From IMG/VR virus record IMGVR_UViG_3300041405_000225, positions 1 through 64,000 of that record: a stretch of 64,000 nt of DNA; one strand, 5' to 3'. This document shows positions 35,742 through 50,900 of the stretch, in pieces. Position numbers and translations under genes: made by a program. Below the pieces are notes generated by a model, which was given only the letters and a program-made list of their open reading frames with translations, was not told the DNA's origin and did not search any database. This DNA is from a virus. Every line of letters begins with the position of its first letter. Positions within the stretch are counted from its first letter, which is position 1.

Positions 35742-35788
35742 GACATAATGGCACAAAGGCGCTACATCACAATAGCGCTTTTATGTTT
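35742..35788 (-). promoter_or_regulatory. repeated promoter, copy B
   Basis: Minus strand: TTGTGA (35767-35772), 16-base spacer, CATTAT (35745-35750), then GTC. Upstream AAACATAAAAGCGCTA is shared with copies A and C. Confidence 0.65.
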
Positions 35789-44983: not shown

Positions 44984-46021
44984 CTACGCGGTCAGTCGGT
45001 TTTTAAAATCGCCACCCACCAGTTGCCCGAGCTTTGCTCTGGCCTGTTTGGCGACGTCGGTTATCTCGGACTTGGCGCCAGCCTTGATTGCGGGCGGCGC
45101 GACTTGAATAGGGGCTGCATTGGCAGCGGTGGCCACGGCCTTTTCGGCGCTCTCGCGGCGCAGGCGCTGTTTTTCCTGCGCTTGGGCTTTCACCACGTAG
45201 GATTCACAGTGGCGCAGTAGGGAGGCGATCGGGTGGCAGTTGTCGGCAATGGATGGCGTCTTGACCGCTTCGACGTAATACCGGGCGGTGAGGGGCGCGA
45301 TGTCCTGCCCAATGCGCTCGACAAGCTTGGCCATCTGTCCGCCGATCGTGGCGTTGTAGATCGGCCACTGGCGGTATTTGGTGTTGAACGCGATGGCATA
45401 CGCCAGCCAGGCCGCAAAAGTTTTGCTCTTCGGGCTCTGCGGGTAGTTGGCCGGCGCCAGCGCCAGCGCCTTTCGCTCTTCGTCACTCAGCGAGCAGTCG
45501 TCGTTCGCTCCCGCAGGGTCGTCGGTGAGGTTTTTGACTGCTCTTTCAATGCTAACTGCTTGTTTATTATTAACTAAAGCGTCCGGGTTAGCCGTATCCG
45601 GTTGAGCCGTATTCGGCGAATCCTCACTCGGTGCCACCGTTTCCGGCAAATCCGTAACCGGTTCGCCCTTGCTCTTTTTCTGGCTCGCGATGAACAACGC
45701 ACCAGCATCAAGATCCGGGTTTTCGGATACTTCGTAGGTCATCCCCTGGAAGGTGCCGCCCTGTCGGTCGTAGTGGCGGACCACGTAACCGGCCATTTGC
45801 AGTTCCTTGAGGATGCCATACACCTTGTCGCGGCCCGATCGCTTGCCCAAGCAATTACGCGTACGGGCCAGCAAGTCTTCAACGCGGACTTCCCAGTGAT
45901 CCGGCTTGCTCAGCAAATACACGAGCATGCCGCGGGCTTCCCAGCTCAATCGGTTGTCTTCGATTGTGGTCGTGGGCAGGACGTAGAACTGGCTTTTACG
46001 AGCGGCGCGAATGATGCTCAT
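44984..46021 (-). CDS. phage replication initiation protein (winged helix)
   Basis: 345 residues from MSIIRAARKSQFYVLPTTTI. The start of the protein (DNRLSWEARGMLVYLLSKPD, HWEVRVEDLLARTRNCLGKR) is a winged helix as in phage O-type replication proteins. A Pro/Ser/Asp linker follows (about 125-170). The C-terminal helical block (about 195-260) contains YPQSPKSKTFAAWLAYAIAF. It likely recognises an origin, possibly within the gene or nearby, and recruits host helicase. Confidence 0.65.
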   Translation of the reverse strand: MSIIRAARKSQFYVLPTTTIEDNRLSWEARGMLVYLLSKPDHWEVRVEDLLARTRNCLGKRSGRDKVYGILKELQMAGYVVRHYDRQGGTFQGMTYEVSENPDLDAGALFIASQKKSKGEPVTDLPETVAPSEDSPNTAQPDTANPDALVNNKQAVSIERAVKNLTDDPAGANDDCSLSDEERKALALAPANYPQSPKSKTFAAWLAYAIAFNTKYRQWPIYNATIGGQMAKLVERIGQDIAPLTARYYVEAVKTPSIADNCHPIASLLRHCESYVVKAQAQEKQRLRRESAEKAVATAANAAPIQVAPPAIKAGAKSEITDVAKQARAKLGQLVGGDFKNRLTA

Positions 46022-46116
46022 CAGCACCCCCTGTTAGGTGTGCTACATGGGCAATAACGGGTCGACTCGCGCAGAAATGCCGGAAACATCCGACAAAACT
46101 GGCAAAAAGAATGATT

Positions 46117-46469: not shown

Positions 46470-46943
46470 TCATCCCCGAGGGAGCTTTTTGAGCTTCCCC
46501 ATCGTCTTCTGATAGAAGGCTTCTGAAACACCTCTGAGCCCCAAACAGGCTTGCTCAAGCTGCTCGAAATTGCGCTTGCCCACCACGACCGGCACACCTT
46601 CGCCGCGTGCATCAGCCATGCGCTTCAGCCGTCGCGCGCGATTCAGAGACGCACGTAATTCCGGGTAGGGATAAGGCTGGTCCAAATAGCCGAAAGGCAG
46701 GCCTATAGCCTCTTCTACCTTGCGTGCCAAGAACTCAGGGAACCCGCCTTTGGCTTGCATAGCCTGGGTGATCTGGTTTGCGATCGCATGACATTCAGCG
46801 TCCGGCAAATGCGACAGCAACGCGCGCATACCCCTCGGACTGTGCAGGTCTGAATACAAGCTAAATCGTTGCTGTCGTGCCCGCTTCCCGGCGTCAACCG
46901 CTTCCCTCGCGGTAGTGGCGCCTTCAAACACTTCTAGGTTCAT
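46470..46943 (-). CDS. putative DNA-binding regulator
   Basis: 157 residues from the ATG at 46943. The middle (CHAIANQITQAMQAKGGFPE, FLARKVEEAIGLPFGYLDQP) resembles the end of a lambda-CI/XRE helix-turn-helix and the LGLPxGWLD motif after it. The part C-terminal to it is basic (RASLNRARRLKRMADARGEG). It is divergent from rdgC across a region with operator-like sites, so it may be the switch regulator. The HTH is not complete enough to be sure. Confidence 0.5.
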   Translation of the reverse strand: MNLEVFEGATTAREAVDAGKRARQQRFSLYSDLHSPRGMRALLSHLPDAECHAIANQITQAMQAKGGFPEFLARKVEEAIGLPFGYLDQPYPYPELRASLNRARRLKRMADARGEGVPVVVGKRNFEQLEQACLGLRGVSEAFYQKTMGKLKKLPRG

Positions 46944-46989
46944 GCTCAAGATTCCATTGGTAAATCCATGGGTAATTTACGCGCAAGCC

Positions 46990-47177: not shown

Positions 47178-48293
47178 ATGTTTTTCAAGAATCTCCTGCT
47201 CTACCGCCTCACCCAATCGATCGACCTGTCAGCCGACACCCTGGAAGCCGCACTGGCCACCAAACAAGCGCGGGCCTGCGCTAACCAGGAACTGACCACT
47301 TATGGATTTACCGCACCGTTCGGCAAAGGCGAAGACGCTCCACTGGTACATGTCAGCGGCGACTTCCTGCTGATCAGCGCTCGCAAGGAAGAACGAATTT
47401 TGCCGGGCAGCGTTGCACGTGATGCCGTCAAGGAGAAGGTCGAAGAGATCGAGGCCGAGCAAATGCGCAAGGTCTACAAAAAAGAACGCGACCAGATCGA
47501 AGACGACATCATTCAGGCCTTCCTGCCGAGGGCATTTATCCGCCGATCGGCGACCTTCGCCGCCATCGCGCCGAAGCTGGGTCTGATCTTCGTCAACTCG
47601 GCTAGCCCGAAGCGCGCCGAGGATCTGTTGTCGACCTTGCGCGAAGTTATCGGCTCACTGCCGGTACGCCCACTGACGGTGAAGATGTCACCAACCGCCA
47701 GCATGACCGACTGGCTGACGACACAGAAAGCCGCTGATGACTTCTTTGTTCTCGATGAGTGCGAGCTGCGCGACACCCATGAAGACGGCGGTGTTGTCCG
47801 CTGCAAACGTCAAGACATGACCGGCGATGAAATTCAGACTCACCTGAGCACCGGGAAAGTTGTCACTCAGCTGTCCATGGCCTGGCAGGACAAGCTGTCG
47901 TTCGTGCTCGACGACAAGCTGGTGATCAAACGCCTGAAGTTTGAAGACTTGCTGGTGGATCAGGCGGAACAGGACGGCGGCGACGATGCCCTTGGCCAAC
48001 TGGATGCCAGCTTTACCCTGATGATGCTGACCTTCGCCAACTTCATTCCGGCGCTGCTGGACGCGCTGGGCGGTGAAGAGACCCCCGACGGTCTGGCCAG
48101 CACCAACGTCCCCGAAGATGAATTGCTGCCCGAGGCGATCGCCTTTGTGCGTGTTTCGCGCCGCGCAACTGTCGCCGCCCTTCAGCGCCATTTCCACATC
48201 AACTACAACCGTGGCGCTCGCCTCATAGAGCGAATGCAGGCCAATGGCGTTGTCAGCCCGGCCAACGACAAAGGCGCCCGAACCGTTTTGTAA
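47178..48293 (+). CDS. rdgC: RdgC fused to an FtsK-gamma-like domain
   Basis: 371 residues. Residues 1 to about 301 are a full RdgC ([60 protein letters not shown]), the ring-forming DNA-binding recombination protein that restrains RecA. Residues 313-371 ([60 protein letters not shown]) match the FtsK gamma domain closely, including QR, YNR, AR and VS. Bacterial RdgC ends near 303 residues, so the gamma domain is an extra module. FtsK gamma recognises KOPS DNA and contacts XerD. Confidence 0.85.
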
Positions 48294-49383: not shown

Positions 49384-49691
49384 CAACTACCGTTTGTCGT
49401 CTATTTTAAGCTCTATTGGAACTTACTCTAACGCTTGCTACCTTAAGCGAGTGTGGGGCGCAGTGTGGGACTGAGTTTTTCTGGCGTCAGGAAAACCCTT
49501 ATTTCACAAGGCTTACAGGCCATACATACCGGGGATACACCATCCCCGTAGCTTTCGGTAAAATCTGCGCCACTTATCCTAATGAAGTACGGATCGGGAA
49601 AATTTCCCTTACCCCTGTCACTCGGTCCGAGAATGGAAGCTGCAAGCAATGCGAACCCAAGCCGTTACACCCTGCAAAAAGGTCGAATACT
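49384..49691. other. 308-bp region before the integrase with repeats and control sites
   Basis: Contains two AGTGTGGG direct repeats (49450-49457 and 49462-49469, 12-bp period) that could be integrase arm sites, and ACCGGGGATA at 49528-49537 with a partly palindromic continuation to CCCCGTAGC. No gene is evident. It could be part of attP or the int promoter. Confidence 0.4.
49528..49537 (+). promoter_or_regulatory. ACCGGGGATA regulatory word
   Basis: Plus-strand variant ACCGGGGATA, 154 bases before the integrase start, followed by an inverted ATCCCCGT. Confidence 0.4.
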
Positions 49692-50900
49692 ATGCCGCTC
49701 GCTCAAAAGGTTATCGCGACGATAACAGTCCCCGGCGTCTATGCCGATAAGAACGGACTAAGCCTCAAGGTTAGGCCCACTGGCACAAAATCGTGGGTAC
49801 TACGCTATCAACTCAATGGCGAACGCCATGACATCGGCTTAGGGTCATTTCCCGATATCAGCCTGGCCGACGCGCGCAAGAAAGCAATGGAATTTCGCGT
49901 TCAGATCAACAAAGGGATAGATCCACTGGAGCAACGCAAGGAAGCGACAATTGCCGCGGTTACCGTTGAAGATGAAGCGCTGACCTTTATTGAGCGACAT
50001 CGTGCAGGGTGGTCGGACAAGCACGCCACACAGTGGCTGAATTCGCTGACTGAGTATGTGTTCCCCGTCATCGGCAGCATGCCGATCGCCACCGTGGACA
50101 CACCCGACGTCATCAAGGTGCTCGATCCGATTTGGCTGCAAAAACCTGAAACAGCGCGCCGGGTCCGTAACCGCATGGAGCGGATATTCGATCACGCCAA
50201 GGCTCACGGGCACCGCAAGAACAGCGAAAACCCGGCGCGCTGGAAAGGCCATTTGCAAAACCTCATGCCCAACAACCAAAACTCGGTTGAGCAGCTGGAA
50301 AGCATGGATTTCACGCGCCTGCCTTTCTTTATGCGTGTGTTGGAAGGGGAGGACTCCCGGGCCGCCCGCTGCTTGCAGTTCCTGATCCTGACCGCATGCC
50401 GTACCAGTGAAGCCTTGGGCGCCACCTGGAGCGAAATCGACATGATCAATCGTGTCTGGACCATTCCAGCCGAGCGCATGAAGAACGGCGAAGAGCACCA
50501 GATACCGCTGAGTGAAGAGGCTATGCAGGTTCTACGCGACACTGGAACCCGCGGCAGAAGCGAGATCGTTTTCCCAGGCACGCGATCGACGACCATGTTG
50601 CCGGATAACTCGCTGCGCCGACTTTTGCGTAAATTGAAAGAGGACTGCACACCACACGGTTTCCGGGCAACCTTCCGCACTTGGGCGTCTGAGAAAACGG
50701 CTTTTTCGCACGAGCTGTGTGAAATATCGCTGGCCCACGTTGTCGGCAATGCTACATCGCGCGCCTACGTCCGTGGTAACCAGTTGGAGAAGCGCCGACC
50801 GCTGATGTCCCGCTGGTCGAAGTACGCTATGGACCGTGTAACACCGCATCACCCGATCATGGGAAAACAACCTACGCCCGAGCAAACAACATTTATATAA
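49692..50900 (+). CDS. int: tyrosine recombinase (integrase)
   Basis: 402 residues, start at MPLAQKVIATITVPGVYADK. The N-terminal DUF4102 region (NGLSLKVRPTGTKSWVLRYQ, LGSFPDISLADARKKAMEF) is followed by the core-binding region and a catalytic domain. The catalytic domain has R237 (LTACRTSEALG), K263, H322-x-x-R325 (TPHGFRATFR), H349 and Y359 (SRAYVRG). This is the P4/CP4-type integrase family that usually targets tRNA genes. All catalytic residues are present. Phage genes continue on both sides, so here it is not at a prophage edge. Confidence 0.9.
   Translation: MPLAQKVIATITVPGVYADKNGLSLKVRPTGTKSWVLRYQLNGERHDIGLGSFPDISLADARKKAMEFRVQINKGIDPLEQRKEATIAAVTVEDEALTFIERHRAGWSDKHATQWLNSLTEYVFPVIGSMPIATVDTPDVIKVLDPIWLQKPETARRVRNRMERIFDHAKAHGHRKNSENPARWKGHLQNLMPNNQNSVEQLESMDFTRLPFFMRVLEGEDSRAARCLQFLILTACRTSEALGATWSEIDMINRVWTIPAERMKNGEEHQIPLSEEAMQVLRDTGTRGRSEIVFPGTRSTTMLPDNSLRRLLRKLKEDCTPHGFRATFRTWASEKTAFSHELCEISLAHVVGNATSRAYVRGNQLEKRRPLMSRWSKYAMDRVTPHHPIMGKQPTPEQTTFI

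What the first reader, a model, noticed from the sequence alone, without database searches (positions are those of the whole stretch)
47178..48293. RdgC fused to an FtsK-gamma domain in a phage
Seen: residues 1-301 match RdgC over its full length and 313-371 match FtsK gamma (QR, YNR, AR, VS pattern). Known: RdgC forms DNA-encircling rings that limit RecA; FtsK gamma reads KOPS and activates XerD. Inference: the fusion may place a RecA-restraining ring at KOPS or at dif, for example to protect or resolve circular phage DNA, or to use host Xer. This pairing is not one I recall.
Basis: partly seen in the sequence, partly recalled or inferred. Interest (0 to 1): 0.75.

Follow-up and report, generated by a model that had tools for sequence, protein, structure and literature searches.

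The report
Phage RdgC ring with FtsK reader
A temperate Pseudomonas phage, whose closest relative lives as a circular plasmid, makes a DNA-encircling protein (RdgC) with the sequence-reading tip of the host's DNA pump FtsK fused to its end, and many other phages have put the same tip on this or similar DNA-clamping proteins, which suggests a shared but untested way of placing such rings on chosen DNA.

Summary
Window 47178-48293 (+) is one intact 371-aa gene: RdgC (Pfam PF04381, E 3e-111, residues 1-300), a short linker, and FtsK gamma (PF09397, E 6e-19, residues 313-371). A confident AlphaFold2 model matches solved RdgC (0.8 A) and KOPS-bound FtsK gamma (0.6 A). It is not an artefact: a related element sequenced from an isolate has the same fusion at the same place. 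It is also not unique: at least 42 public Pseudomonas and Vibrio phage records and dozens of IMG/VR contigs carry it, mostly annotated as plain RdgC. New here: (1) the window belongs to a phage-plasmid family with ParA, Ref, DarA/DdrB and a tyrosine recombinase; (2) gamma has been gained or lost on RdgC at least 11 times, toggling between nearly identical RdgCs; (3) in other phages it sits on the neighbouring NA37/YejK nucleoid protein, or on GapR or ParB/H-NS proteins, and one copy is 90% identical to P. aeruginosa FtsK gamma. Best reading: gamma is a host-derived DNA-reading tether that positions DNA-encircling or nucleoid proteins. KOPS enrichment, dif sites and a link to the plasmid state were tested and not found, so the target site is unknown. 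Xer activation is possible but less supported.

The parts
47178..48077 (+). RdgC domain, residues 1-300 of the fusion
   Evidence: Pfam PF04381 E 3.3e-111; model to 2owy rmsd 0.8 A
48078..48113 (+). interdomain linker, residues 301-312 (11 residues by local HMM boundaries; 6-105 in other phages)
   Evidence: pLDDT dips to 62 at residues 301-310; linker lengths
48114..48290 (+). FtsK gamma winged helix, residues 313-371
   Evidence: Pfam PF09397 E 5.6e-19; model to KOPS-bound 2ve9 rmsd 0.6 A
49416..50900 (+). tyrosine recombinase 1.1 kb downstream (Arm-DNA-bind_3, Phage_int_M, Phage_integrase; true start probably near 49692); a homologue follows rdgC in the phage-plasmid family
42234..43241 (-). 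NA37/YejK-like nucleoid-associated protein, without gamma here; carries gamma in some other phages
   Evidence: Pfam PF04245 E 7e-88; 335-aa homologue in CP048608.1
44553..44981 (-). Ref-like RecA-dependent nuclease
   Evidence: homologue in CP048608.1 matches PF16786 E 1e-18; syntenic position
44984..46027 (-). replication-initiation-like protein
   Evidence: PHROG hits to replication initiation families, E 2e-13
46470..46949 (-). repressor-like gene divergent from rdgC-gamma
   Evidence: weak PHROG transcriptional repressor match E 3.5e-4

Best explanation
The protein is an RdgC DNA ring carrying a C-terminal FtsK gamma winged helix as a sequence-reading tether. Shown: the two intact domains; retention of residues that read KOPS in FtsK (N1296, R1300, E1303 in E. 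coli numbering); recurrent gain and loss of gamma on RdgC; placement of gamma on other DNA-encircling or nucleoid proteins of phages; at least one gamma nearly identical to host FtsK gamma. Inferred: gamma docks on a short directional DNA motif (host KOPS or a relative) and seats the RdgC ring there, as three gammas on KOPS seat the FtsK hexamer, so that rings load at chosen sites on host or phage DNA instead of at random, locally excluding RecA or nucleases. The exact motif and the benefit to the phage are unknown.
For: Domain and fold matches. In 21 gamma domains found without gamma-based seeding: Q1288 21, R1289 20, N1296 21, R1300 19, E1303 19 plus one D. Gamma on RdgC changes at least 11-14 times in a 105-row tree and toggles between almost identical RdgCs. 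Gamma sits on NA37 directly after a gamma-less rdgC in four contigs; each of 13 gamma-positive records among 50 has exactly one gamma, 11 on RdgC and 2 on NA37. Other partners: GapR in both domain orders and a ParB + H-NS protein. A gamma-TerS fusion is published in Bacillus phages (PMC8190038). NA37-gamma of L071 is 90% identical to P. aeruginosa FtsK gamma.
Against: No KOPS enrichment in the window or in gamma-positive relatives, and no over-represented 8-mer shared by the two nearest gamma-positive genomes. R1300 is lost in about a third of pattern-seeded RdgC-gammas (mostly W or H instead), so not all read KOPS. Many gamma partners are uncharacterised, so 'rings and nucleoid proteins' may be an annotation bias. 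No binding data.
Confidence: 0.5

Rival explanations
1. Xer hijack: gamma activates host XerD (or a phage tyrosine recombinase) so that RdgC-gamma couples anti-RecA action to resolution of plasmid or prophage multimers.
For: Q1288 and R1289, the main XerD salt-bridge side (PMC5052618), are kept in nearly all gammas. The window element is phage-plasmid-like with ParA, and a tyrosine recombinase lies 1-2 kb after rdgC across the family. A 9-residue gamma peptide fused to XerC can stimulate XerCD recombination (PMC5052618).
Against: R1292 and G1294, two further XerD contacts, are H and N in the window gamma; all 73 sampled bacterial FtsKs have K/R and G (a pattern-seeded sample). No dif-like site above the null. 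Most sister phage-plasmids with the same recombinase lack gamma, and phages without that ParA have it. Q1288/R1289 also belong to the DNA-binding surface.
Confidence: 0.14
2. Host interference: RdgC-gamma occupies host KOPS (or competes with FtsK gamma) to block FtsK translocation and chromosome segregation or division in the infected cell.
For: A phage gamma nearly identical to host FtsK gamma exists and phage gammas keep KOPS-reading residues; KOPS are on the host chromosome and need not be enriched on phage DNA, which fits the null.
Against: No direct evidence; gamma on terminase (PMC8190038) and on ParB-like or primase-like proteins fits phage DNA transactions better. The strand bias of KOPS in these phages is seen with and without gamma.
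Confidence: 0.15
3. Gamma is merely a generic winged helix that adds nonspecific DNA affinity, or binds the phage's own operators (autoregulation), with no KOPS-like reading.
For: Recognition residue R1300 varies in many phage gammas; no motif signal in genomes; gamma is dispensable to close relatives.
Against: Strong retention of the specific recognition residues in the unbiased set and recent host-like copies argue for selection on the FtsK-type surface.
Confidence: 0.18
4. Artefact: two genes joined by frameshift or misassembly.
For: None found.
Against: Intact ORF, conserved fusion at the same place in a sequenced isolate and dozens of other records.
Confidence: 0.01

Closest known systems
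RdgC (PF04381; E. coli and P. aeruginosa RdgC, PDB 2OWL, 2OWY)
   Same: Full-length domain and same fold; 78% identical to P. aeruginosa RdgC 2owy in the structural alignment
   Different: The solved cellular RdgCs end at about residue 303-306; here a gamma domain follows
FtsK gamma domain (PF09397; 2VE8/2VE9, KOPS reader and XerD activator)
   Same: Fold and DNA-reading residues N1296, R1300, E1303
   Different: No motor domain; attached to RdgC; R1292H, G1294N and E1306Q in the window copy
Gamma-terminase small subunit of Bacillus phages Sam46/Sam112 (PMC8190038)
   Same: FtsK gamma fused to a phage DNA-binding protein; the authors also found few KOPS in the phage
   Different: Partner is the small terminase subunit and gamma is N-terminal
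P1-type phage-plasmids (Ref, HrdC/RdgC, DarA/DdrB, ParA, Cre; from general knowledge)
   Same: Comparable set of accessory genes in the 81-kb relative CP048608.1
   Different: The recombinase here is integrase-like, not Cre; P1 HrdC appeared only as a match to the RdgC part, and gamma on it was not examined further
Hollowayvirus (F116, LKA5, H66 without gamma; PA8, JBD90, BR228a with gamma)
   Same: RdgC with or without gamma; in BR228a, LKA5 and H66 at the same operon position after an SSB gene
   Different: No match to the phage-plasmid ParA in those tested; LKA5 and H66, without gamma, have NA37 right after rdgC

Membership tests
RdgC (PF04381) | full-length sequence profile match | tested here: met
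   E 3.3e-111, profile 1-298 of 298
RdgC (PF04381) | RdgC fold able to form the toroid | tested here: met
   monomer model matches 2owy at rmsd 0.8 A, TM 0.98 by target length; the dimer ring itself was not modelled
RdgC (PF04381) | DNA binding and restraint of RecA | not testable with these tools
   needs biochemistry
FtsK gamma domain (PF09397) | profile match above gathering score | tested here: met
   68.1 bits versus 30.6
FtsK gamma domain (PF09397) | KOPS-reading residues (R1300, E1303, E1306) | tested here: inconclusive
   R1300 and E1303 kept, E1306 is Q; residue roles from PMC2680272; KOPS binding itself not tested
FtsK gamma domain (PF09397) | XerD-contact residues (Q1288, R1289, R1292, G1294, N1296) | tested here: inconclusive
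   Q1288, R1289, N1296 kept; R1292H, G1294N; contacts from PMC5052618
FtsK/SpoIIIE DNA translocase | ATPase motor domain | tested here: not met
   no motor domain in the 371-aa protein
KOPS-guided element | KOPS enriched or specially polarised in the element's DNA | tested here: not met
   5 versus 8.5 expected in the window; no difference between gamma-positive and gamma-negative relatives
dif-using (Xer) element | dif-like site in the element | tested here: not met
   best 16/22 matches versus null best 14-15 in eight simulations; the last 15.8 kb of the record was not scanned
Phage-plasmid | phage genes plus plasmid partition genes and an observed circular plasmid form | tested here: met
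   colinear with circular 80,993-bp CP048608.1; ParA homologue at G000 69339-70127; circularity was observed for the relative, not for this record

The most novel reading that the evidence does not exclude
Phages repeatedly capture the host FtsK gamma domain and graft it onto proteins that encircle or coat DNA (RdgC, GapR, NA37/YejK, ParB/H-NS, terminase), using it as an interchangeable loader that seats such assemblies at directional DNA motifs, so that gamma is a general ring-loading module independent of the FtsK motor.
Probability: 0.33. Interest if true: 0.82.

Novelty: new variant of a known kind. Interest (0 to 1): 0.6.

Why it matters
RdgC binds DNA without known sequence preference, so where it loads in cells is unclear; a natural fusion to a sequence reader gives a tool to ask. 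The hopping of gamma between RdgC and the neighbouring nucleoid protein in otherwise similar phages makes clean natural pairs for experiments (for example JBD90 versus LKA5, BR228a versus H66). If gamma works as a motor-independent loader of DNA rings, it changes how the FtsK gamma domain is viewed and explains a set of phage genes that are annotated as 'FtsK translocase' or plain RdgC.

Tried and rejected
KOPS enrichment: window and 50 related records with a reversed-pattern control: no effect. A dif-like hit at 35769 looked significant by whole-window shuffles but not against a third-order null: dropped. Over-represented 8-mers shared by the window element and CP048608.1: none convincing. 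Gamma as a plasmid-state marker: rejected, since most sister phage-plasmids with ParA lack it. Strand bias of KOPS in these phages: present with and without gamma, so not attributed to it. Alignment A3 had no stretch conserved enough for a scan. Literature: only 3 held papers contain both RdgC and FtsK, none judged to concern a fusion from titles and abstracts. Key RdgC and FtsK structure papers (Briggs 2010, Ha 2007, Lowe 2008) are not held. Caution: conservation of residues 1288-1296 in the sets is inflated by the search pattern; only the set is free of that bias.

Full report
Observation. The ORF 47178-48293 (+) encodes 371 residues with no stop. Pfam finds RdgC over residues 1-300 (full model, E 3e-111) and FtsK_gamma over 313-371 (68 bits, cut-off 30.6). 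Sequence search of the PDB gives P. aeruginosa RdgC 2owy and P. aeruginosa FtsK gamma 2j5o/2ve8. An AlphaFold2 model (36 relatives, pLDDT 93, pTM 0.77) superposes on 2owy at 0.8 A and on KOPS-bound gamma 2ve9 at 0.6 A. Codon-position GC is coding-like through the junction. Frameshift or misassembly is excluded because the same fusion stands in the same gene order in an independently sequenced isolate (P0004) and in L207.

Where it lies. The window is the first 64 kb of a 79,833-bp IMG/VR record. Its right-hand 25 kb have no close match among phage records, but the record is colinear throughout, circularly permuted, with CP048608.1, a circular 80,993-bp plasmid of P. fluorescens DR133. That element has tail genes, ParA and a partition gene (homologues in G000 at 69339-70127 and 68962-69378), DarA/DdrB, Ref, NA37/YejK, RdgC-gamma and a tyrosine recombinase. 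So the 'phage' belongs to a P1-like phage-plasmid family. In related records a homologous tyrosine recombinase accompanies rdgC whether or not gamma is present, and at the loci compared it lies 1-2 kb after rdgC (with the locus ranges).

How common. Full-length RdgC-gamma occurs in 20 listed Pseudomonas phage records and 22 listed Vibrio phage records at 100% coverage, in Pararheinheimera and Achromobacter phages, and in dozens of IMG/VR contigs. GenBank labels are mostly 'RdgC', 'DNA recombination-dependent growth factor' or 'exonuclease'. In bacterial genomes a capped scan gave only a handful. Among 80 phage RdgC loci found with an RdgC-only seed, 26 have gamma.

Mobility of gamma. On a 105-row RdgC tree the presence of gamma needs 14 changes, at least 11 forced by well-supported branches. 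Nearly identical RdgCs differ: BR228a and H66 (without), JBD90 and LKA5 (without). In LKA5 and H66 the gene after rdgC is NA37. In L071, L115, L122 and L228 that NA37 protein carries gamma while rdgC does not. In 50 whole records gamma occurs once (13) or not at all (37): 11 on RdgC, 2 on NA37. Other gamma partners include GapR in both orders and a 750-aa ParB_N/HTH_ParB/H-NS/gamma protein (L357). RMF-like and primase-like proteins also occur, as do uncharacterised proteins beside RecT. When the scan was led by a GapR-linked gamma, 34 of 80 gamma ORFs were still RdgC. The NA37-gamma of L071 is 90% identical to P. aeruginosa FtsK gamma, so capture from the host looks recent there; the window gamma is at most 60% identical to any sampled bacterial one.

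Residues. E. coli FtsK R1300, E1303 and E1306 read KOPS (PMC2680272); Q1288, R1289, R1292, I1293, G1294 and N1296 touch XerD, and that surface overlaps the DNA surface (PMC5052618). The window has Q, R, H, I, N, N at the XerD set and R, E, Q at the KOPS set. In 21 distinct gammas from the RdgC-seeded set: R1300 19, E1303 19 (plus one D), E1306 17, N1296 21, R1289 20, R1292 as K or R 15. In the larger, pattern-seeded set R1300 is often W or H, so some lineages probably read another sequence. This leans toward DNA reading for the window protein, but cannot exclude XerD contact.

Failed predictions. KOPS is not enriched in the window (5 versus 8.5 expected). In 17 gamma-positive and 33 gamma-negative records the KOPS to reversed-control ratios are 1.57 and 1.35 (p 0.32); strand polarity exceeds the control in both groups. 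No dif-like site convincingly exceeds the null. No shared 8-mer stands out. Gamma is missing from most sister phage-plasmids with ParA.

Interpretation. What is shown is anatomy and evolution; what is inferred is action. In FtsK, gamma binds KOPS and the motor assembles beside it (PMC5052618). Phages have placed gamma on RdgC, a dimeric DNA ring (structural summary in PMC11077077), on GapR, whose family is described as ringing dsDNA (PMC7824862), on NA37, on ParB/H-NS and, as published, on terminase (PMC8190038). The most economical explanation is that gamma supplies sequence-directed placement to proteins that otherwise bind DNA indiscriminately. The site could be host KOPS, a phage motif not detected here, or a drifted one. 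Placing RdgC rings would locally exclude RecA or nucleases, or mark the host chromosome. I give this 0.5; Xer activation 0.14; interference with host FtsK 0.15; generic DNA affinity or autoregulation 0.18.

Novelty. Both domains are well known; the combination is present in sequence databases but I found no description of it (one open library only, no web search). I rate it a new variant of a known kind. The broader pattern of gamma on phage nucleoid and ring proteins is the more novel part and remains a hypothesis.

Noticed in passing
G000 1-79833 (window 1-64000) versus CP048608.1 (L187, L188): The window element is colinear with an 81-kb circular P. fluorescens plasmid, defining a P1-like Pseudomonas phage-plasmid family with ParA, Ref, DarA/DdrB and RdgC; IMG/VR holds a dozen or so relatives.
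   Followed up: partly
L357:934-3183: A 750-aa phage protein combines ParB N-terminal, ParB HTH, H-NS C-terminal and FtsK gamma domains.
   Followed up: no
L363, L371, L351 (GapR first); L347, L350, L352, L353, L355, L359, L368 (gamma first); L024 (two gammas): GapR DNA-binding domain fused to FtsK gamma in both domain orders in phages.
   Followed up: partly
L071:3882-5186, L115:5848-7173, L122:653-1993, L228:5900-7180: NA37/YejK-gamma fusions directly downstream of gamma-less rdgC; the L071 gamma is 90% identical to P. aeruginosa FtsK gamma.
   Followed up: yes
L044, L048, L090, L158 and relatives: RdgC-gamma lineage with W in place of the KOPS-reading R1300, suggesting changed DNA specificity.
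   Followed up: no
49416-50900 and homologues: A tyrosine recombinase gene accompanies rdgC across the phage-plasmid family, independent of gamma; could be a dimer resolvase or an integrase.
   Followed up: partly
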